DNA of 7,768 bases, taken from assembly GCA_030615035.1 (NCBI GenBank), contig JAUXAC010000035.1, positions 1 through 7,768 of the forward strand, read 5' to 3'. The stretch comes from Dehalococcoidia bacterium (lineage in GTDB: Bacteria; Chloroflexota; Dehalococcoidia; Dehalococcoidales; RBG-16-60-22). Numbering within the stretch: the first letter of the stretch is position 1; each line of letters begins with the position of its first letter. Made by a program: the position numbers and the translations under genes. Positions 1 through 7,615 of this stretch are shown here, piece after piece. The notes beneath the pieces are model-generated. The model was not told the origin of the DNA and made no database searches. It worked only from the letters and a program-made list of their open reading frames with translations.

Positions 1-129
1 CCCAATAAGCAGGGCCCTGGTGACAACCCTGAAAATCTTATACGCGATTATAATAAAGATAAAAAACCCTACGAATAGCAGTATTATCTGCGGCTGCATG
101 AACTGCCCCAGGGCTTCAGCAATAGCCAT
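1..129 (-). CDS. N-terminal part of an unrecognised membrane protein (runs off left edge)
   Basis: An open frame starts at ATG 129 and runs leftward without a stop to base 1, giving 43 residues. It begins MAIAEALGQF and has one strongly hydrophobic stretch at about residues 15-30 (rich in I, L, F, V), followed by basic residues (K31, R34, R38). This suggests a single N-terminal membrane anchor with its C-terminal side in the cytoplasm, or the first of several helices. No family can be named from this fragment. It lies 30 nt after the isopentenyl phosphate kinase stop, on the same strand. No Shine-Dalgarno is seen close to the ATG, but a TATA-like box lies about 25 nt upstream, so it may start its own leaderless transcript. 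A role linked to isoprenoids is only suggested by position. Confidence 0.6.
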   Translation of the reverse strand, partial: MAIAEALGQFMQPQIILLFVGFFIFIIIAYKIFRVVTRALLIG

Positions 130-149
130 GGTATAATATTGTCCCCGGG

Positions 150-159: not shown

Positions 160-954
160 TTAGAAAGAGATTTCAGTTCCTATGCCTTTTCCGCCATTCA
201 GCAGGTTATAGACATTTCCCTCTTTTGTTATATTAAAGATAACAACCTTGGTGTCCTTCAGGTTCTCCCTAAGCTTCAGAAGTTTTCCTCTCATACCTCC
301 AGTAACATCCGTGGTTCTTGCCTCCCCAACCTTCTCCAGAATCCCGTCAAAATTATCATTATCAATCCTCTTTATCAGCTCTGCCTTGGGGTTTGCCTTG
401 GGCTCATCCGTAAAGATTCCGTCCACGTCTGTTCCCAGTAAAACCCCATCCGGATTGAATTTCTTTGCAAGAAATGCGATTATGGCATCCCCGCTCACGA
501 CGCTCGCGTTCAGCTTTTTATCCGGGACCATCTGCCCGTAAAGCACGGGTATCTTTCCCTCAGCAATGGCTCTTTCAACCCCCTCCATATTAAATTCAAC
601 AATTTTCTTTTGCTCCTGGACAATCAGCCCATTGGGGTCCATCCCAACTGCCTCCAATCCCGCCTGGTTCAATATCCTTACAACCAGGGTGTTCAAAAAA
701 TTACAGTCCTTTATTGTCTTGGCAAGCCCCTCCTTCTGCCTTTCAGTAAAAACACCATTATCAATATCATATTCCTTGACATTGGTGTGTCCAAAGGGTC
801 CTGCACCATGCACAAGAATAAGCCTGAAATCTTCCTCCCTTGCCTTTTTTATCTCTCCTGCAATCCTTCCTATAACATCTTCCTTTGCTTTCAATTTATT
901 CTCATCCTTAAAGGTAATACTGCTTCCGCCTATTTTCAGTATAAACAAATCCAT
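160..954 (-). CDS. ipk: Isopentenyl phosphate kinase
   Basis: This enzyme phosphorylates isopentenyl phosphate with ATP to give isopentenyl diphosphate (EC 2.7.4.26), the last step of the archaeal modified mevalonate pathway; it is cytosolic. The 264-residue product has the amino-acid kinase fold signatures in order: KIGGSS at 7-12 (phosphate-binding glycines and Lys7), HGAGPFGH at 49-56, SGDAI at 154-158, TDVDGIF at 175-181, and TGGMRGK at 218-224. The histidine ending the HGxGxFGH motif (His56) is the family hallmark that binds the substrate phosphate and separates IPK from glutamate or acetylglutamate kinases. Length is normal for archaeal IPK. The start is ATG 954, because GAGTGA lies 4 nt upstream; a TTG at 975 would put that site inside the gene. 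It is the last gene of the cluster, 4 nt after the dehydratase small subunit. Confidence 0.95.
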   Translation of the reverse strand: MDLFILKIGGSSITFKDENKLKAKEDVIGRIAGEIKKAREEDFRLILVHGAGPFGHTNVKEYDIDNGVFTERQKEGLAKTIKDCNFLNTLVVRILNQAGLEAVGMDPNGLIVQEQKKIVEFNMEGVERAIAEGKIPVLYGQMVPDKKLNASVVSGDAIIAFLAKKFNPDGVLLGTDVDGIFTDEPKANPKAELIKRIDNDNFDGILEKVGEARTTDVTGGMRGKLLKLRENLKDTKVVIFNITKEGNVYNLLNGGKGIGTEISF

Positions 955-958
955 AGTA

Positions 959-964
959 TCACTC
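959..964 (-). promoter_or_regulatory. Shine-Dalgarno site for isopentenyl phosphate kinase
   Basis: The minus strand reads GAGTGA, then TACT, then ATG. The site consists of the last Glu codon and the TGA stop of the dehydratase small subunit. Its distance fixes the kinase start at 954 instead of the TTG at 975 upstream. Confidence 0.7.
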
Positions 965-1348
965 TGTCCTGACAATTCCCTGCTCTCCGTCCACTTCCAC
1001 GGTCATCCCGTCCTTCAGCTGGGATATGTCAATCCTGTCCACGCAGGGTATTTCAGAAATAATCACCCCGACTGCAACAATGGTCTCGCATTCCTTATTG
1101 ATTATCGCTGCGGGTGCGGTCCCGGCCTTTTTCATTCGGTAAAGGGTGTAGGAGCCCACAGTGGAGCCCTTGCCCTGTGGGAAGACCAGAATCTTGCTCT
1201 TAACACTCTTGCCCTCCAGGGGATGGCCCTTCTCCACAACCACCCCTGTATCCGGCTCCACTCCGCCATAGAAGCTTATGCCCTCTGAGGAAACCAGAAT
1301 CTCTCCCTTTACATTTCCCTTGCAGATTTTCCTACCCTTTAATTCCAT
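959..1348 (-). CDS. Phosphomevalonate dehydratase small subunit (aconitase X swivel domain, DUF126)
   Basis: This is the small subunit of the aconitase-X type enzyme that dehydrates (R)-mevalonate 5-phosphate to trans-anhydromevalonate 5-phosphate (EC 4.2.1.182). The 129-residue product carries family signatures: SFYGGVEPDTG at 25-35, HPLEGKSV at 42-49, and FPQGKGSTVGSY at 56-67, whose Ser residues correspond to the substrate-binding serine loop of aconitase swivel domains, followed by GTAPAAII at 76-83. Length fits the small subunits seen when large and small chains are separate genes. ATG 1348 is preferred because AGGTGA lies 5 nt upstream; the longer TTG frame from 1366 would overlap the large subunit by 17 nt and include that site. 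The large subunit stop is 1 nt away (TGATATG), so the two are probably translationally coupled, as expected for a 1:1 complex. Confidence 0.93.
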   Translation of the reverse strand: MELKGRKICKGNVKGEILVSSEGISFYGGVEPDTGVVVEKGHPLEGKSVKSKILVFPQGKGSTVGSYTLYRMKKAGTAPAAIINKECETIVAVGVIISEIPCVDRIDISQLKDGMTVEVDGEQGIVRTE

Positions 1349-1349
1349 A

Positions 1350-2525
1350 TCATTCACCTGTAGCAATCTCTACGCACTCCTCCAGGCTGCAGAACCTGGT
1401 CTTGAAATCATTCTTCCCCCTCCCGTAGAACACCCCTTTTGCGGAATTTGTGGCAGCGCCCTTGAACCTTCCCTTCAGGGGTGCCACGGCAAGGCAGGTG
1501 TCGCATGCGAATTTTGCGCCTGCCTCCTCTATGATTTTGGTGTATCCTGCCTGGTCAGCCATCCTCTTAACAGGCCTTGCAGTGCATATCCAGAATTCCT
1601 TCTTGACCTTCTTGCCTTTCAGAAGCCCCGCAATCTCTGCAATCTCCTTCAGGGTGCAATGGGGGCACCCAATGGAGACAAAATCTATCTCCTCTGCATC
1701 ACTGAGCTCCTCTTTGGCCTTTTCAATATCCTCCTGAGTCACCTCAATTTTCTCCTCCGGAACCTTGGTTCTGTTGGGGGTTATGCCCTCCATATAGAAC
1801 AGTGCAGTCCCGCCATATGTTGCAATGCTCGCCGAGAAGCTCTTCAGCTCCTCTGTCCTTGCGTTCTTTATGCCCCTTATCAGGGGAATCCTGTTCTTTA
1901 TCCTGTCACCAATGACCTTGCCCAGGGCCCCAAAGTCTGTTATGTCCCTGATGTCAGTTTTCACATCAACCAGGACCTGCGCTTGCCTGTTTTCATCCAG
2001 ATGCATCCCGAACTCAGGGGTCCTGCCTGTCAGGGCCGAGGCCAGGGCAGAGGGCCCTCCCTCCCTGTTAGTCCTGGCTCCCAGGACAGAGTTCGCAAAG
2101 CACACTGCAGAGGACTCTGCCCAGGCAATGTGCTCCCCGAACCTCGGCAGATTCCCGATAAGATAGGGTGTGCATGTGCAGGTGGTTATAATACCCATCT
2201 TCTTGAAAGCCTCAATCACGAGCCCCTGCTTCTCTGCAAAATCCTCGGAAATTCCCAGGTTCTTCCAGTTCTCCATATCCATTCCAGCAGGATTTAGTGT
2301 GGTCAGCACCCTGACCCTCCCGTCCTTTGCCATATCTGCCAGGAACTCCAGGCCTGCATCCCCAAGGTTGGAATAGCTCACCCCTGCAATCTGCACAGAG
2401 CCCACATCTATAAGCTTCTCAGCTCCGAATATCTCCCCCAGGGCTGTCAGAATCTCCATGCTCTTTTTCACAGCGTTTCCATGCTTGCCTTCCAGCATCT
2501 CCTTCTCTTCCTGCGTCAATTCCAT
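1350..2525 (-). CDS. Phosphomevalonate dehydratase large subunit (aconitase X catalytic domain)
   Basis: This is the catalytic, iron-sulfur subunit of phosphomevalonate dehydratase in the modified mevalonate pathway. It has 391 residues, normal for AcnX catalytic subunits. Recognisable blocks are the N-terminal LTQEEKEMLEGKHG (3-16), YLIGNLPRFGEHIAWAESSA (121-140), NSVLGARTNREGGPSAL (145-161), GCPHC (286-290), and the C-terminal SAKGVFYGRG (361-370), typical of aconitase X and absent from ordinary aconitases. Likely cluster-binding cysteines are among Cys116/Cys118, Cys287/Cys290 and Cys341/Cys344; which three act cannot be assigned here. Some AcnX proteins act on cis-3-hydroxyproline in bacteria. 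Here the neighbouring mevalonate kinase, decarboxylase and IPK make the phosphomevalonate role much more likely. The ATG at 2525 is 4 nt after the decarboxylase stop and has GGAGTGA just upstream. Confidence 0.94.
   Translation of the reverse strand: MELTQEEKEMLEGKHGNAVKKSMEILTALGEIFGAEKLIDVGSVQIAGVSYSNLGDAGLEFLADMAKDGRVRVLTTLNPAGMDMENWKNLGISEDFAEKQGLVIEAFKKMGIITTCTCTPYLIGNLPRFGEHIAWAESSAVCFANSVLGARTNREGGPSALASALTGRTPEFGMHLDENRQAQVLVDVKTDIRDITDFGALGKVIGDRIKNRIPLIRGIKNARTEELKSFSASIATYGGTALFYMEGITPNRTKVPEEKIEVTQEDIEKAKEELSDAEEIDFVSIGCPHCTLKEIAEIAGLLKGKKVKKEFWICTARPVKRMADQAGYTKIIEEAGAKFACDTCLAVAPLKGRFKGAATNSAKGVFYGRGKNDFKTRFCSLEECVEIATGE
1354..1359 (-). promoter_or_regulatory. Shine-Dalgarno site for the dehydratase small subunit
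   Basis: The minus strand reads AGGTGA with a 5-nt spacer to ATG 1348. It lies in the last codons of the large subunit gene (Gly-Glu-stop) and is the reason to prefer ATG 1348 over TTG 1366. Confidence 0.75.
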
Positions 2526-2529
2526 TCAA

Positions 2530-2536
2530 TCACTCC
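2530..2536 (-). promoter_or_regulatory. Shine-Dalgarno site for the dehydratase large subunit
   Basis: The minus strand reads GGAGTGA, 4 nt before ATG 2525. It contains the final Glu codon and TGA stop of the decarboxylase gene, so ribosome stopping and starting occur at the same place. Confidence 0.7.
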
Positions 2537-3831
2537 AAGAAATCCTTAACATTCACCTTCGGGAACTCCACCCTTCCAAAGCTCTTCCCTTTTGCAACCA
2601 GGGGCTTTGTGAGGTCAAACCCCATTTTGTATGTCATCTTGGTCCCGGGCTCCCCGCTCGGGTCAAGACTGGAACCTGGTTCCCTGCCCTTGATGAATAT
2701 GTCCTGGTCGCCCTGGAACCTTGTGGCCATTGCCCATTCCACCTCCAGGGGCTCAAGGATATTGATATCCTTATCCACTACAAAGGCATGCTTCATGCTT
2801 GAGTGCCCTGCGAATGCAGCCTCCAGGGCATTCTTCCCATCATCCTCATTCTGCTTGTCTATCTTGATAATCCCATGCAGCCAGGAGCAGCCGCCGGGGT
2901 TTATGCTCACATCCAGGCACTTTACGCCTGCCTCATTCACCTTCCTGAATATGGTGGGCTCCCTTGGCATCCCCATAAGTATCTTGTGCTCCAAACAGCC
3001 TGGCAATAGGGCCTGCCATATGGCATCCCTCCGGTGCGTGATCTTCTTCATAGTGAACACAGGCTCCTGCCTCACAACGTCCTGGGTTTCTGTCAGGTCC
3101 ACAAAGGGCCCCTCATCTGCCTTCTCCTCCAGGGATATGCTTCCTTCCAGGACCCATTCACAGTCCGCTGGTACGTATGCATCAAAGGTCTTTGCCTTCA
3201 CCACTTTTAATGGTTCCAGTGTGTTAGCTATCTCCATTTCATCCTTCCCCTTCTCCACGCTGGTTGCTGCAGCAAGCAGGATATTGGGCGAATTCCCGAT
3301 ACAGACAGCAATGTCCAGTTTCTTCTGGTCCTGCAGGAACTGGTCAAAATGTCTCTTGCCCACAATCCTGACAGAAAACTTGTCCTTCCCAATCTGCATC
3401 ATCCTGTGGAAATCCAGGTTCTGCCCAAACTCAGGATGCTTTGCAACCACAACCCCGGAGCTTATATAATTTCCACCATCGTTCTGGCAATGGAACAGAA
3501 TGGGTATCCTGTCCAAATCCACTTCCATCCCCACCTCCTGGCAGGGAGCATTCTTCACCACCTCTGGTTTGGAGGGATTGTCTATCGCCTCAATCATCTT
3601 CGGGATGAGCCCCTCAGGCTTTATGCCAAGGTATTTTGCAATGAGTTCTTTACTGGAAAAGACATTCCCAACAACCCTAAAATCAGACTCCTTTATCTTA
3701 TTGAACAGAACAACCCTGTCCTCCAGTGCCTTGAGCAGGCCGGAAGCTTCCAGCTTTTTGGAAACCGACTTATCAATCACCTGGAGCTTTCCCTCATTCC
3801 TGAGCTTCTCTATGAAATCCCTGAAACCCAT
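2530..3831 (-). CDS. UbiD-family anhydromevalonate phosphate decarboxylase
   Basis: The predicted enzyme removes CO2 from trans-anhydromevalonate 5-phosphate to give isopentenyl phosphate (EC 4.1.1.126), using prenylated FMN. The 433-residue product has UbiD family blocks: FRDFIEKLRNEG at 3-14, the NDGGNYISSG cofactor region at 117-126, FHRMM at 141-145, GKRHF at 158-162, and EGPFVD at 240-245. By family comparison, the catalytic triad would be Arg155, Glu240 and Asp245 (the last position is Glu or Asp in this family), and His161 and Glu225 are probable metal ligands. UbiD proteins act on many substrates; the assignment to anhydromevalonate phosphate rests on the cluster. ATG 3831 is chosen because AGGTGG lies 8 nt upstream. 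The GTG at 3843, which opens the frame further, lies within that site. ubiX stops 2 nt before, so enzyme and cofactor maker are coupled. Confidence 0.93.
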   Translation of the reverse strand: MGFRDFIEKLRNEGKLQVIDKSVSKKLEASGLLKALEDRVVLFNKIKESDFRVVGNVFSSKELIAKYLGIKPEGLIPKMIEAIDNPSKPEVVKNAPCQEVGMEVDLDRIPILFHCQNDGGNYISSGVVVAKHPEFGQNLDFHRMMQIGKDKFSVRIVGKRHFDQFLQDQKKLDIAVCIGNSPNILLAAATSVEKGKDEMEIANTLEPLKVVKAKTFDAYVPADCEWVLEGSISLEEKADEGPFVDLTETQDVVRQEPVFTMKKITHRRDAIWQALLPGCLEHKILMGMPREPTIFRKVNEAGVKCLDVSINPGGCSWLHGIIKIDKQNEDDGKNALEAAFAGHSSMKHAFVVDKDINILEPLEVEWAMATRFQGDQDIFIKGREPGSSLDPSGEPGTKMTYKMGFDLTKPLVAKGKSFGRVEFPKVNVKDFLE

Positions 3832-3833
3832 AA

Positions 3834-4385
3834 TTATTTCCACCTTTTAAACTTTTTATTGTTTACCCCAAGCGCATCCAATACCTTCCCTGTCATGAAA
3901 TCCAGCATATCCTGGATGCCTTCTGGTTTATGATATAATCCAGGGCTCAGGGGCATTACAATCCCCCCGTAATGGGCTATCTTTCTCATGTTCTCCAGGC
4001 AGGGCCCGCTCAGTGGGGTTTCCCTGATGCACACCACCAGCCTCTTTCTCATCTTGAGCATATTGTCCGCTGCCCTGGTTATCAGGGTCCCTGAATGCGC
4101 GCTTGCAATCTTAGAAGCTGTCTTGACAGTAGCGGGTATCACCACCATTCCGTCCACCAAAAAGCTTGAACTCGATATTGGCGCTGCCATGTCCTTGTTG
4201 TCAAAGCATTTGGTGGCCAGCTTCTTGACATCCTCTGGGCTCTGGCTGGTCTCCTCCCTTACCAGCTTCTCCGCCCACTCGGACAGAACCAGGTATGTTT
4301 CAACCCCGGCTTCCTTTAGAGCTTTCAGTACCTCTATCCCATACCGGATTCCGGATGCCCCGCATACTGCAACAATGATTCTCAT
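3834..4385 (-). CDS. ubiX: Flavin prenyltransferase (makes prenylated FMN for the UbiD-type enzyme)
   Basis: This enzyme joins dimethylallyl phosphate to FMN, forming the prenylated FMN that UbiD-family decarboxylases require (EC 2.5.1.129). The 183-residue product has the flavoprotein fold and UbiX/Pad1 motifs: GASG at 9-12 (flavin binding), SSSSFLVDGMVVIPAT at 71-86, RAADNMLK at 104-111, RETPLS at 121-126 (conserved Arg/Glu of the active site), PLSPGLY at 145-151 (conserved Tyr151), and LDALG at 169-173 near the C terminus. Length is typical. It sits directly upstream of the UbiD-family gene, and its final codons (Arg-Trp-Lys-stop) contain that gene's Shine-Dalgarno. No Shine-Dalgarno precedes its own ATG; a strong TATA box about 25 nt upstream implies a leaderless mRNA that starts the five-gene operon. 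Confidence 0.94.
   Translation of the reverse strand: MRIIVAVCGASGIRYGIEVLKALKEAGVETYLVLSEWAEKLVREETSQSPEDVKKLATKCFDNKDMAAPISSSSFLVDGMVVIPATVKTASKIASAHSGTLITRAADNMLKMRKRLVVCIRETPLSGPCLENMRKIAHYGGIVMPLSPGLYHKPEGIQDMLDFMTGKVLDALGVNNKKFKRWK
3840..3845 (-). promoter_or_regulatory. Shine-Dalgarno site for the UbiD-type decarboxylase
   Basis: The minus strand reads AGGTGG, inside the last codons of ubiX, with 8 nt to ATG 3831. It contains the alternative GTG codon at 3843, which makes that codon an unlikely start. Confidence 0.72.
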
Positions 4386-4450
4386 ACGCTTAGAAATTGT
4401 ACTATATATTTAAAGGCATGCTGAAACAGCTTCGTCAAAGGCAGAACAAG
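4386..4450. other. Intergenic spacer between mevalonate kinase and ubiX
   Basis: This 65-nt gap is the longest non-coding stretch in the window. It holds the ubiX promoter (TTTAAATA on the minus strand) and, closer to the kinase stop, a very short inverted repeat (GCTG-TTT-CAGC on the minus strand) with no following T-run. That is too weak to call a terminator, so read-through from the kinase gene into ubiX remains possible. Confidence 0.6.
4407..4414 (-). promoter_or_regulatory. TATA box of the ubiX-UbiD-dehydratase-IPK operon
   Basis: The minus strand reads TTTAAATA followed by TATA, a near-perfect archaeal TATA box. Its centre is about 25.5 nt from the A of the ubiX ATG (4385), which places the start of transcription at or next to the start codon. 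The sequence between them has no Shine-Dalgarno, so the first gene is probably translated from a leaderless mRNA. Confidence 0.7.
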
Positions 4451-5383
4451 CTATCCGATAGTGGTCCTGAGGGTCTTGAATCCAGCATCCTCCAGCGCCT
4501 TTACCACCCTCTCCTGCACCTCTGCCCCTGGGGTGAGTGCAACTATAAACCCGCCCCTTCCTGTCCCGGTAAGCTTGGCCCCTATTGCCCCATTCTCCTT
4601 TGCAATCCTAATCAGGTTCTCCAGCTCGTCACAGGAGACCCCCATCTTCCTCAGGAACTCCTGGTTCTTATCCATCAGCATACCAACGGATGACCAGTCA
4701 GAATTCCTTACGGCACCCAATGCCTGGTTGTAGACCTCCCTGTATTCCCTGCATATACCATCAAACCATTCCCTGTTCCCTTCTTTTTTCCTTCTGACAT
4801 CATCCACCACGACCTTGGTCTCCTGGGTTATGCCAGTGCTTGCCATCACAATCTCCACAGGATTGGCGACAGAAAGCCTTTCAATCTTGTTGGGCCCTCC
4901 CAGGAGGTTCTTCTCAAAGGTTATGAACCCGCCGAATACAGAGCAGGTGTTGTCAATCCCTGAGGGGGTCCCAGCTCCTGCCTCCTCTGCAATGTAGGCA
5001 GCCTGGTTTATCTTTTCATCGTCCATCCCCAGCCCTAGCATCTGGTTCAGGGCCCTGCTTATGCTTGCTGCCAGGGCAGCGCTCGCACCCACGCCAGAGG
5101 AGCAGAGCAGATTGCCGGAAAGCGTAATCTTTACAGGCTTCCTGTCCAGGTCCAGATTGAAGTGCCTAATCAGCGCCTTCAGCTGCCTTTGAATCTCCTC
5201 CCCCTTTTTTTTCTTATATCCAGGGACCTCAGGCCTGTTGTCCACAAACTCAAATTTCCCAGCCTCTTCCACTCTTGCAATGGTCTTGTTGCCTATGCCA
5301 GAGGCTATCCCAGGAATACCATACACTACAAAATGCTCTCCAAACAGTATTACCTTTCCGAACCCAGAACCCTCAAATGCCAT
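4451..5383 (-). CDS. mvk: Mevalonate kinase (GHMP kinase family)
   Basis: This enzyme phosphorylates mevalonate with ATP to mevalonate 5-phosphate (EC 2.7.1.36), the first step encoded in this cluster; it is cytosolic. The 310-residue product shows GHMP kinase motifs in order: GKVILFGEHFVVYG at 9-22 (Lys10, Glu16-His17), the ATP-binding loop SSGVGASAA at 95-103, GTPSGIDN at 138-145 with the likely catalytic Asp144, and KLTGTGRGG at 270-278. The EHFVVYG form of the first motif is characteristic of mevalonate kinases, as against homoserine or galactokinases. Length is standard for archaea. ATG 5383 is chosen over the in-frame TTG at 5389 because it matches the usual N-terminal distance to motif 1 and lies about 25 nt from a TATA-like box; no Shine-Dalgarno is present. 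The stop (TAG) is 65 nt before ubiX. Confidence 0.95.
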   Translation of the reverse strand: MAFEGSGFGKVILFGEHFVVYGIPGIASGIGNKTIARVEEAGKFEFVDNRPEVPGYKKKKGEEIQRQLKALIRHFNLDLDRKPVKITLSGNLLCSSGVGASAALAASISRALNQMLGLGMDDEKINQAAYIAEEAGAGTPSGIDNTCSVFGGFITFEKNLLGGPNKIERLSVANPVEIVMASTGITQETKVVVDDVRRKKEGNREWFDGICREYREVYNQALGAVRNSDWSSVGMLMDKNQEFLRKMGVSCDELENLIRIAKENGAIGAKLTGTGRGGFIVALTPGAEVQERVVKALEDAGFKTLRTTIG

Positions 5384-5403: not shown

Positions 5404-5411
5404 CTTAAAAA
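5404..5411. promoter_or_regulatory. Divergent promoter core: TATA-like box usable on both strands
   Basis: The plus strand reads CTTAAAAA and the minus strand TTTTTAAG. On the minus strand the box centre is about 24.5 nt from the mevalonate kinase ATG at 5383, giving a leaderless start. On the plus strand, about 25 nt downstream lies position 5432-5434, just before the AAGGTG site of the methyltransferase gene, giving a leader of roughly 10-13 nt. The purine-rich GCGAAAGG immediately upstream on the plus strand could serve as a TFB recognition element. An alternative AT-rich block at 5413-5424 could instead serve the plus strand. Confidence 0.45.
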
Positions 5412-5432: not shown

Positions 5433-5438
5433 AAGGTG
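5433..5438 (+). promoter_or_regulatory. Shine-Dalgarno site for the methyltransferase
   Basis: AAGGTG lies 5 nt before ATG 5444. It supports this start over the in-frame ATG at 5453 (Met4). It is unusual in this window as a first gene of a transcript with a Shine-Dalgarno. Confidence 0.6.
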
Positions 5439-5443
5439 TTATA

Positions 5444-6523
5444 ATGTCTGAGATGTTCAGGATGGATGACAGTAATATGCCTCTAAGGTTAGGAAGCGCT
5501 TTGAGGGTTCCCAGCTATGCATATCCCAATTGGGGAATCCCGGAAGGGGCATACAGGATAGAGAGCGACACTGCTTATACCAGCGAATGGAGGGAGGGTT
5601 CCCCAAAGCAGATGCAGTATGTAATAGACGCTGTTTTAGAGGCAGGCTTTGATAACAACTCCCAGATTCTCAGGGATTCCTGCGCAAGGGTGGTTGCTGC
5701 CAAGGTCAGGAATCTGGCGCAGAGCCCCAAGAGGAGGGAGAGGATAAACTACATGGATGTAGGCGCAGGGGTAAGCACAATCAATGTTTTTGACGCAATA
5801 GATGACAATTACAAGGAAAGGGTCTTCTTCACCCTGATGGAGCCCTCTGAGAAAAGGGTTGAAGATACAGCCTCACATCTGTCGAAAAAGGGCTTGAAGA
5901 GGAACAAGGACTACAGGGTTATTGTTGCCCCGGACCAGCACCTCCTCGCCTTTGTAAAGTCAAGGAGCCAGGACATCGTCTCCTATGTGGCAAGCCTCCA
6001 TCACCACTCCTACACAGACACCACTGCAAAGACAGTGAATGTGGTGATGAAGAAGAAGGGCCAGCTTGTGGTGTCAGACTGGCACAACCCTGAATGGGAG
6101 CATCCAAACAGGGTATACAAGGCCCTAAAAGAGGATTTTGATACTGAGGAATTTGGCTGGGAAAGAAAGGAAATAGATTTGGCACTATTTGCAAGAACCT
6201 TTCCCAAGGCCTATGAGGAAGCACCTGAGCTCTCACCCCTGGACCACGGCTCCTACATGCAGATAAGGAAGTTCTGGCAGGGATATGCCAGGATAAGGAA
6301 AAAGGCAATAGATACAGGGGAGTTTGATGTGAATGATGATATTCTGATGCTTGAGGCCCATGTGCCGGTGGAGAGGCAGAACGAGGTCCTAAGGAATGCA
6401 GGGTTCATGATAAGCCCCAAATTCGTGGAAGATTTAAACGGACAGGACAATATTAAGGACAACCCGGAGCAGCTGCTCAATGACAGCAGGCTCCTGATGA
6501 CAACGGTTGCATACAAGCAGTAG
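5444..6523 (+). CDS. Class I SAM-dependent methyltransferase, substrate unknown
   Basis: The 359-residue product has a Rossmann-type methyltransferase core: motif I MDVGAGVST at 104-112 (SAM-binding glycine loop), an acidic residue ending strand 2 at Glu133 (LMEPS), motif IV-like DIVSYVASLHHHS at 177-189, and a strand-5 segment GQLVVSDWHNP at 206-216. Before the core is an extension of about 100 residues, rich in Tyr, Trp and Pro at first (22-50) and then helical, which may be a substrate lid or dimer domain. After the core (about 225-310) comes another mostly helical insertion, then a C-terminal strand region with NAGF at 318-321, as in many small-molecule methyltransferases. The substrate cannot be named. 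His186-188 and His214 are possible active-site residues. It is first in a two-gene plus-strand unit with the HAD hydrolase (8 nt gap), divergent from mevalonate kinase. Confidence 0.8.
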   Translation: MSEMFRMDDSNMPLRLGSALRVPSYAYPNWGIPEGAYRIESDTAYTSEWREGSPKQMQYVIDAVLEAGFDNNSQILRDSCARVVAAKVRNLAQSPKRRERINYMDVGAGVSTINVFDAIDDNYKERVFFTLMEPSEKRVEDTASHLSKKGLKRNKDYRVIVAPDQHLLAFVKSRSQDIVSYVASLHHHSYTDTTAKTVNVVMKKKGQLVVSDWHNPEWEHPNRVYKALKEDFDTEEFGWERKEIDLALFARTFPKAYEEAPELSPLDHGSYMQIRKFWQGYARIRKKAIDTGEFDVNDDILMLEAHVPVERQNEVLRNAGFMISPKFVEDLNGQDNIKDNPEQLLNDSRLLMTTVAYKQ

Positions 6524-6531: not shown

Positions 6532-7218
6532 ATGAAGTCCGTACTACTTGATGTGGACGGCGCACTGATTGACAGCGTGCCTGAGCTCTATCGAACAACA
6601 TGTAAGATGTGGCAGGATTTATACTCCCAGCCATTCCCTTTGAACGAAGAAAGATTCACTGCCGAGAGACCCAACATAACAACCATGCTGGATTACTTCT
6701 CCATAATCAATGGAATTCTGGAGGAAATGGAGTATGACGATGAAATCATATCAGCCCCTGAGCTAAAGCAAGCCTTCTATGATAAGCGCAAGGAAAGGAT
6801 GGCAACAAGCAGGGATGAATGGATTGCTGAAAACACGCTATATGACGGCGTCCCAGAGATGCTGGCTGAGCTGCAGGCAATGGGGATAATCAATGCTGTT
6901 GTTTCCTCAAAGAACGAGGGTGCAATAAGGGAGCTTTTCAAATACCATGATATATCCAAATATTTCAAAACAATTGTGGCCCTGGAAAAGGGCGGGAGGA
7001 CCGAACAGTTCAGGCTTGCCCTCGACAACCTGGGCATCCAGCCGCAGGACACAATAGCATACGATGACCAGGGGAAGAACCTGATTGTGGCAAGGGATAT
7101 GGGTATAGTCCCTGTTGGAGCCCCGCAGGGATACGCAAAGCCAGGCGAGCTTGATGAATTTGAGTGCGCAACAATAGCAGAATTCCCTGCAGCTGCAAAA
7201 AGAATTTTCAACCTTTAA
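6532..7218 (+). CDS. HAD-superfamily hydrolase (phosphoglycolate-phosphatase-like) with altered motifs
   Basis: The 228-residue product resembles HAD phosphatases of the subfamily with an alpha-helical cap between motifs I and II. Motif I is [10 protein letters not shown] (5-14), with nucleophile Asp7 and acid/base Asp9, but the usual Thr of DxDGT is Ala11. The cap region spans about 18-100 and includes the acidic stretch EEMEYDDE (64-71). Motif II is VVSSK with Ser125. A lysine for motif III is probably Lys153. Motif IV is YDDQGKN (177-183), where the usual GDxxxD becomes DDxxxN, so the last metal-binding Asp is Asn183. The two changes could lower activity or alter substrate; activity is uncertain. 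The C-terminal [11 protein letters not shown] (191-201) is typical of the family. It is probably co-transcribed with the methyltransferase. A run of six T at 7260-7265, inside the opposing Nudix gene, is a possible transcript end. Confidence 0.83.
7208..7218. other. Convergent 3' overlap of the HAD and Nudix genes
   Basis: The stop of the plus-strand HAD gene (TAA at 7216-7218) lies inside the minus-strand Nudix gene, and the Nudix stop (TGA, bases 7210-7208) lies inside the HAD gene, an 11-bp tail-to-tail overlap. There is no room for intergenic terminators, so the two transcripts must overlap as antisense RNA at their 3' ends. Confidence 0.85.
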
Positions 7219-7615
7219 CTTCTTTCAGAATCCTTTCTGTATAATTCGTCAATTTCAGCTTTTTTGCCTCTTCCAGTGTAAACCATCTAAATTCAGCAGC
7301 ATCGCTTCCTGCCATTATCTCTCCAATGACCCTTCCCCTGAAGGCATGACACCTGTGTTTATGTGCCACACCACCAACCCTTTCTTCACCTTCCGGGACA
7401 TCATGCACAAAAACAAAGAACGGTTTTTTCTCTGTTTCCACACCACCAACCTCTTCATTGGCTTCCCTTTGTGCAGCCTGCTCCGGGGTCTCGCCGGGGT
7501 CCACATGCCCTCCGGGTGTTGCCCACAAACCCTTTTGAGGAGGGGTGCCTCTCTTTATAAGTAGTATCTTTCCGTCCTTCTCAATAAGATTTGTAGCAGT
7601 ATTTTGCAGAATCAT
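7208..7615 (-). CDS. Nudix hydrolase (MutT-like)
   Basis: The 135-residue product contains a complete Nudix box at residues 36-58: Gly36, Glu42, Arg50-Glu51, Glu54-Glu55 and Gly57 occupy the Gx5Ex7REUxEExGU positions, so it should bind Mg2+ and cleave a nucleoside diphosphate linked to another moiety, or a related diphosphate. Upstream, [21 protein letters not shown] (16-36) is the usual MutT-type opening strand and loop. Near the C terminus, [13 protein letters not shown] (108-120) matches the E-x-x-W-F/hx-x-x-E-h block that closes many Nudix domains. Substrate is unknown; it lacks the Cys and His motifs of type I isopentenyl diphosphate isomerase. Its ATG overlaps the stop of the gene before it (ATGA), so it is the second or later gene of a minus-strand operon entering from the right edge. 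A GGGAGG about 14 nt upstream is farther than usual for a Shine-Dalgarno. Confidence 0.9.

What the first reader, a model, noticed from the sequence alone, without database searches (positions are those of the whole stretch)
160..5383. Complete mevalonate-to-IPP modified mevalonate pathway in one locus
Six adjacent same-strand genes encode mevalonate kinase, flavin prenyltransferase, UbiD-type decarboxylase, both phosphomevalonate dehydratase subunits and isopentenyl phosphate kinase. The pathway is known from archaea (aconitase X / UbiD / IPK route), but to my knowledge these genes are often dispersed. Having every lower-pathway step plus the cofactor maker together is a strong functional link and makes this a compact natural version of the route. 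Gene order does not follow reaction order: the decarboxylase precedes the dehydratase. IPP isomerase, HMG-CoA synthase and HMG-CoA reductase are not in the window.
Basis: partly seen in the sequence, partly recalled or inferred. Interest (0 to 1): 0.72.

Follow-up and report, generated by a model that had tools for sequence, protein, structure and literature searches.

The report
Swappable mevalonate routes at one locus
In a tiny uncultured archaeon, one chromosome slot for making membrane-lipid building blocks appears to hold either of two different enzyme routes, this window being the version with the archaeal route, next to an unstudied methyltransferase-like gene that is found beside such genes whichever route is present.

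Summary
The six genes are really there: a tight minus-strand run (4451-5383 down to 160-954) for mevalonate kinase, flavin prenyltransferase, UbiD decarboxylase, both phosphomevalonate dehydratase subunits and isopentenyl phosphate kinase. The dehydratase keeps its substrate and Fe-S residues. The clustering itself is ordinary: the same order on one strand occurs in 20 of 21 AcnX-bearing genomes sampled from the phylum of a Diapherotrites genome.

The surprise is the surroundings. The window (a whole contig) and contig C32 of genome G230 share exactly 141 identical bases at both ends and differ from the next base on: the signature of two arms of one assembly-graph bubble. The G230 arm carries the classical route (PMK, MVK, MVD); the window arm the archaeal route. 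So one population seems to hold two lower mevalonate routes as alleles of one locus. The methyltransferase-like gene at 5444-6523 is in both arms (80% identical); its family lies within about 1.3 kb of lower mevalonate genes in 21 of 21 strong matches among 156 genomes, beside classical, Thermoplasma-like or archaeal routes. No reads or graph were available; enzyme activities are inferred.

The parts
1..141 (.). left end, identical base for base to bases 1-141 of G230:C32 (L187); holds the start (ATG 129-127, minus strand) of a membrane-type protein that runs off the window
   Evidence: blastn and prefix comparison; tblastn 43 of 43 residues identical; 'membrane-type' read by eye from the residues
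160..954 (-). isopentenyl phosphate kinase (IPK)
   Evidence: NF040647 222.8 bits, cut-off 120; PDB IPK chain E 8e-39; GAGPFGH motif (the role of its His is recalled)
959..1348 (-). phosphomevalonate dehydratase (aconitase X) small subunit
   Evidence: PF01989 117.8 bits; PRK03955 186.5 over cut-off 163; GKGST motif shared with 7cnr_B
1350..2525 (-). phosphomevalonate dehydratase (aconitase X) large subunit
   Evidence: PF04412 525.5 bits; 3 of 3 Cys of TkAcnX-L and 10 of 10 of its substrate-site residues named in the passages of PMC8184944 are conserved
2530..3831 (-). UbiD-family decarboxylase, presumed anhydromevalonate phosphate decarboxylase
   Evidence: TIGR00148 361 bits, cut-off 245; in 22 of 22 related genomes the only UbiD, on the same contig as AcnX
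3834..4385 (-). flavin prenyltransferase UbiX
   Evidence: TIGR00421 216 bits, cut-off 109
4403..4414 (-). possible TATA box (TTTAAATATATA) ahead of UbiX
   Evidence: read by eye in the 65-base gap; inference only
4451..5383 (-). mevalonate kinase, of the lineage found with the six-gene archaeal-route block
   Evidence: TIGR00549 205 bits, cut-off 163; in an 8-row group (SH-aLRT 99) with L003, L009, L012, L014, L019, L020, L026; one clade with the L187 kinase rejected, p-AU 4e-48
5404..5411 (-). possible TATA box (TTTTTAAG) ahead of MVK
   Evidence: read by eye in the 60-base gap; inference only
5444..6523 (+). methyltransferase-like protein (359 aa) linked to mevalonate loci
   Evidence: 85 proteins in the family search; AlphaFold2 pLDDT 94.7, class I SAM methyltransferase fold; next to mevalonate genes in 21 of 21 strong matches
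6532..7218 (+). HAD-family phosphatase-like protein
   Evidence: PF13419 62.9 bits
7208..7615 (-). NUDIX hydrolase, MutT-like
   Evidence: PF00293 86.8 bits; 47% identical to a NUDIX gene upstream of MVK in L009
7628..7768 (.). right end, identical base for base to bases 5434-5574 of G230:C32 (L187); 3' part of a minus-strand gene whose stop is at 7612-7614

Best explanation
The window is one complete version of a mevalonate locus in an Aenigmatarchaeota-like archaeon. Its minus-strand run works as one or two transcripts that turn mevalonate into IPP by the archaeal route: MVK makes mevalonate 5-phosphate, the two-subunit aconitase X dehydrates it, the UbiD enzyme, using prenylated FMN made by UbiX, decarboxylates it to isopentenyl phosphate, and IPK makes IPP. 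In other cells of the same population the same chromosome slot, with identical flanks, holds the classical route instead (PMK, a different MVK, MVD). The two routes are therefore alternative alleles exchanged as whole blocks by recombination; the archaeal-route block MVK-UbiX-UbiD-AcnXL-AcnXS-IPK has the order typical of Diapherotrites and seems to have brought its own MVK. A methyltransferase-like protein is kept in both versions and probably acts on a product or intermediate common to the routes. Shown: gene content, residues, order, identical ends, tree positions, recurrence. Inferred: enzyme activities, transcription, that both arms exist as strains, the direction of exchange, and the methyltransferase's substrate.
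For: Gene identities and residues. The window is a whole contig of 7,768 bases (its own protein's entry). Window and G230:C32 share exactly 141 bases at the left end and exactly 141 at the right, with divergence at once inside; neither 141-mer occurs in any other locus held, nor in the G230 contigs. The L187 proteins pass curated cut-offs for PMK (234 vs 166), MVK (251 vs 163) and MVD (299 vs 171). Tetranucleotide correlation window-L187 0.919, and 0.904-0.925 for 7 of the 13 other readable G230 contigs of at least 5 kb; best of 159 other loci 0.811. The methyltransferase-like protein is 80% identical between the arms, MVK only 56% and placed in different clades. The same family stands beside classical (14), Thermoplasma-like (5) and archaeal (2) route genes in 21 genomes.
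Against: No reads, coverage or assembly graph were available, so a chimeric arm or two copies inside one genome are not excluded, and nothing is known of the flanks beyond 141 bases. The flanking contigs were not found: of 60 further G230 contigs fetched 37 read N, and most of that genome was not fetched. G230 is fragmented and may be a mixed bin; 6 of its 13 other contigs of at least 5 kb correlate with the window only at 0.48-0.84. UbiD groups with Aenigmatarchaeota L009 and L034, while AcnXL, MVK and IPK reject such a clade, so the block may be a mosaic rather than one transfer. The methyltransferase-like family is not a constant part of mevalonate loci: it was found in 24 of 156 genomes and in only 2 of the 19 AcnX-bearing genomes of the 57-genome sample. 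No enzyme has been assayed.
Confidence: 0.74

Rival explanations
1. Both versions lie in one genome: a duplicated or two-copy locus whose flanks repeat, giving the cell both routes at once.
For: Would also give identical contig ends. [quoted passage not shown]
Against: The two genes common to both arms differ by 20% (methyltransferase-like) and 44% (MVK) in protein sequence while the ends are 100% identical, which a duplication does not explain without gene conversion of the flanks. AcnX and UbiD are single-copy in 22 of 22 related genomes, though G230 is not one of those 22.
Confidence: 0.13
2. The shared ends are an assembly artefact: one arm was joined to the flanks of another organism through chimeric reads.
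For: No read data were seen; G230 is fragmented and may be mixed.
Against: It would need false joins at both ends. The window's tetranucleotide make-up fits L187 and 7 other G230 contigs better than any of 159 other loci, and both arms carry related methyltransferase-like genes in the same orientation next to MVK.
Confidence: 0.1
3. Nothing beyond an ordinary archaeal mevalonate operon: the neighbouring genes and the sister contig say nothing about function or exchange.
For: Same six-gene block and order in 20 of 21 genomes with AcnX in the phylum of G003 and in 19 of the 80 best loci. Most AcnX loci of the Aenigmatarchaeota sample lack the methyltransferase-like gene (17 of 19 genomes).
Against: Identical ends with a different route inside and the 21 of 21 linkage of the methyltransferase-like family need a further explanation.
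Confidence: 0.1

Closest known systems
Archaeal modified mevalonate pathway (AcnX-type phosphomevalonate dehydratase / anhydromevalonate phosphate decarboxylase / IPK), proven in Aeropyrum pernix
   Same: All enzyme types present; AcnX cluster ligands and named substrate-site residues conserved
   Different: All lower-pathway genes plus UbiX in one block; the mevalonate kinase is nearest in the PDB to chain 2hfs (E 8e-59), all other chains being at 6e-31 or weaker (2hfs is recalled as a kinetoplastid enzyme)
Classical (eukaryote-type) mevalonate locus of Aenigmatarchaeota, e.g. G230:C32
   Same: Same 141-base ends, same methyltransferase-like gene beside MVK in the same orientation
   Different: PMK and MVD in place of UbiX, UbiD, AcnXL, AcnXS and IPK; different MVK lineage
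Diapherotrites-type mevalonate supercluster HMGR-HMGS-thiolase-DUF35-MVK-UbiX-UbiD-AcnXL-AcnXS-IPK (often with type 2 IPP isomerase)
   Same: Identical order and strand of the six lower genes
   Different: In the window a divergent methyltransferase-like/HAD pair and a NUDIX gene stand ahead of MVK instead of the upper-pathway genes

Membership tests
Archaeal modified mevalonate pathway | Type IIb aconitase X with three Cys ligands and the mevalonate-5-phosphate-binding residues | tested here: met
   C118, C287, C344 and G48, V49, S50, N53, N78, E137, S138, S139, K363, Y367 align to the TkAcnX-L residues named in passages of PMC8184944; small-subunit GKGST conserved
Archaeal modified mevalonate pathway | UbiD-family anhydromevalonate phosphate decarboxylase | tested here: inconclusive
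   UbiD family certain; the only UbiD, and on the AcnX contig, in 22 of 22 relatives; substrate not tested; no tree with the A. pernix enzyme was made
Archaeal modified mevalonate pathway | Isopentenyl phosphate kinase | tested here: met
   NF040647 equivalog over cut-off
Archaeal modified mevalonate pathway | Conversion of mevalonate 5-phosphate to isopentenyl phosphate | not testable with these tools
   needs an enzyme assay
[quoted passage not shown]
   NF051439: large subunit 301, small subunit 88, cut-off 700 set for the fused protein; nearest PDB chain is TkAcnX, 377 bits, against 222 for type I
Two arms of one assembly-graph bubble (alternative alleles) | Two contigs with identical ends of one fixed length on both sides and different interiors | tested here: met
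   141 and 141 bases exactly
Two arms of one assembly-graph bubble (alternative alleles) | Reads joining each arm to the common flanks | not testable with these tools
   no reads or graph available
Class I SAM-dependent methyltransferase (gene 5444-6523) | Rossmann-type methyltransferase fold with glycine motif I | tested here: met
Class I SAM-dependent methyltransferase (gene 5444-6523) | Pfam methyltransferase domain over gathering score | tested here: not met
   PF08242 21.1 bits, cut-off 30; family profile against PDB sequences: no match at E 0.01

The most novel reading that the evidence does not exclude
In Aenigmatarchaeota the mevalonate locus is an exchange slot: whole isofunctional routes (classical, Thermoplasma-like, archaeal) are swapped in and out between fixed flanks, even among strains of one population, while an uncharacterised methyltransferase that modifies a common isoprenoid precursor stays in place.
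Probability: 0.5. Interest if true: 0.85.

Novelty: new variant of a known kind. Interest (0 to 1): 0.7.

Why it matters
The mevalonate routes are used as lineage markers in debates on the origin of archaeal membranes (for example PMC11052028). If strains that share their flanks carry different routes at one locus, route type is a transferable allele rather than a marker of descent, and the cost and benefit of each route (ATP use, oxygen-sensitive Fe-S and prenyl-FMN enzymes) can be compared within one population. The linked methyltransferase-like family is a concrete, testable candidate for a new isoprenoid-modifying step.

Tried and rejected
Own genome: none held. Transfer to bacteria: three loci titled Falkowbacteria or Chloroflexi (L019, L020, L026) carry the block; the genomes of two of them (G013, G014) were drawn in the phylum of the Diapherotrites genome G003, so their titles are probably wrong; L026 (G016) was not settled. 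NUDIX gene as an IPP isomerase: rejected on score. Same HAD gene as in L009: similarity not significant (E 0.026). Left and right partial genes: the left fragment was translated out of frame, corrected; neither fragment matched a locus until G230:C32 was held. A simple 'whole block from one donor' history: the gene trees disagree (one clade of window with L009 and L034: AcnXL p-AU 0.004, MVK 2e-5; window with L009 alone for IPK 2e-51; UbiX 0.42 and AcnXS 0.71 not rejected; the group was named after seeing the UbiD tree). Trees with the A. pernix enzymes were not made. The first end-overlap count was an artefact of N runs and was redone. A single-sequence fold of the methyltransferase-like protein was asked for once and not collected. 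That neither the methyltransferase link nor within-population route alleles were seen in print rests on searches of open-licence papers only.
Full report
WHAT IS IN THE WINDOW. Nine complete genes and two cut ones. On the minus strand: IPK 160-954, AcnX small 959-1348, AcnX large 1350-2525, UbiD 2530-3831, UbiX 3834-4385, MVK 4451-5383; on the plus strand a methyltransferase-like gene 5444-6523 and a HAD phosphatase-like gene 6532-7218; on the minus strand a NUDIX gene 7208-7615. The six pathway proteins each pass a curated cut-off (observation check). Neighbouring genes of the run lie 1-4 bases apart except for 65 bases between MVK and UbiX; TATA-like stretches lie about 18-29 bases ahead of MVK and of UbiX (read by eye), so two transcripts are possible.

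RESIDUES. Against the T. kodakarensis dehydratase (7cnr), its three Cys and the ten large-subunit residues named for the mevalonate 5-phosphate site in PMC8184944 (passages) are identical in the window, and the small-subunit GKGST motif is shared. PMC10040528 (passages) reports for A. pernix that mutants of the three Cys keep under 4% of the activity. The hydroxyproline dehydratase model is far below its cut-off. The catalytic residues of UbiD were not mapped.

HOW COMMON IS THE CLUSTER. Among the 80 best AcnX loci of public genomes, kept for similarity and so not a fair sample, 19 have the six genes in the window's order on one strand. Phylum samples: phylum of the Diapherotrites genome G003, AcnX over cut-off in 21 of 53 genomes; all six genes together in 21 of 21, in the window's order on one strand in 20 of 21. 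Phylum of the Aenigmatarchaeota genome G006, AcnX in 19 of 57; all six within the fetched stretch in 16 of 19 (of the other three, one is on a 7 kb contig), all on one strand in 13, in the window's order in 1. Thermoproteota (phylum of G118, a Bathyarchaeota title), AcnX over cut-off in 36 of 41 genomes, 39 loci; all six in 0 of 39, UbiD beside AcnX in 28 of 39. The search profiles came from DPANN- and Asgard-rich alignments, so distant MVK, UbiX or IPK may be missed in Thermoproteota. In 14 of the 21 loci of the G003 phylum HMGR, HMGS, thiolase and DUF35 lie upstream on the same strand within the fetched stretch (thiolase and DUF35 named by eye); several of the other seven are cut by contig or fetch ends. 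In 22 chosen related genomes HMGR and HMGS were each found in 21, type 2 IPP isomerase over cut-off in 15 and type 1 over cut-off in 3. Clustering of mevalonate genes is stated in print (PMC11052028; abstract, part of section 3 and passages seen).

THE SISTER CONTIG. A search with the methyltransferase-like protein gave 85 database proteins; where the source name gives a phylum it is Aenigmarchaeota. A search of 156 genomes of that phylum found 24 with a match (21 at 144 bits or more; the others 57, 21 and 20 bits). One of them, G230, holds it on contig C32 (L187, 5,574 bases). That contig and the window have identical first 141 bases and identical last 141 bases, and differ from the next base on. 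Such equal shared ends are what a de Bruijn assembler with k = 141 leaves on two paths between the same two nodes (recalled, including that 141 is a usual setting). Inside, L187 has PMK, MVK, the methyltransferase-like gene, a NUDIX gene, a 173-residue gene without NCBIfam match, and MVD; PMK, MVK and MVD pass their curated cut-offs. The window has the archaeal route instead. The switch points fall 12 bases ahead of the start codon of the left flanking gene and in the last codons of the right one. Tetranucleotide make-up ties the window to L187 (0.919) and to 7 of 13 other readable G230 contigs of at least 5 kb (0.904-0.925); the other six give 0.48-0.84; the best of 159 other loci gives 0.811.

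WHERE THE PARTS COME FROM. The methyltransferase-like genes of window and L187 lie in one 13-row clade (100/100). So the window's MVK seems to have come with the archaeal-route block. UbiD groups with Aenigmatarchaeota L009 and L034 (100), while AcnXL, MVK and IPK reject such a clade and UbiX and AcnXS do not: the block is probably a mosaic.

READING. One mevalonate locus with two alternative route alleles in one population is the best-supported explanation (0.74). Rivals are a two-copy locus, an assembly artefact, or an ordinary cluster. Read mapping across the two 141-base ends would decide. A 2021 study says that Aenigmarchaeota genomes cannot make membranes de novo for lack of mevalonate genes (PMC8407114, passage), and a comparative study found the pathway in 20.0% of Aenigmarchaeota (PMC8407392, passage); AcnX in 19 of 57 sampled genomes, and HMGR plus HMGS in G006, G015 and G019, show that the first statement does not hold for the whole phylum.

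Noticed in passing
L003, L014, L135, L139 and others (phylum of G003): Co-directional cluster for nearly the whole pathway from acetyl-CoA to IPP/DMAPP: HMGR-HMGS-thiolase-DUF35-MVK-UbiX-UbiD-AcnXL-AcnXS-IPK, often with type 2 IPP isomerase downstream.
   Followed up: partly
L019, L020, L138 between UbiD and AcnXL; L127 between MVK and UbiD; L034 5411-6025 between MVK and UbiX: Phosphatase-like genes recur inside mevalonate clusters: relatives of the window's HAD gene at 30-59 bits, and in L034 an ORF that looks by eye like a histidine phosphatase.
   Followed up: partly
L183 2892-4076, relatives in L188, L190, L198, L199: A protein of roughly 370-400 residues without Pfam or NCBIfam match (tested for L183) recurs next to the methyltransferase-like gene.
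   Followed up: no
window 4451-5383: The mevalonate kinase is much nearer to PDB chain 2hfs (recalled as a kinetoplastid enzyme) than to any other solved chain.
   Followed up: no
L019, L020, L026: Contigs titled as Falkowbacteria or Chloroflexi carry archaeal mevalonate clusters; the genomes of L019 and L020 were drawn in the phylum of a Diapherotrites genome, so the titles look wrong.
   Followed up: partly
L009 8877-11436: An Aenigmatarchaeota locus adds a NUDIX gene and a geranylgeranyl-reductase-like gene (named by eye) between AcnXS and an IPK that does not group with the window's.
   Followed up: partly
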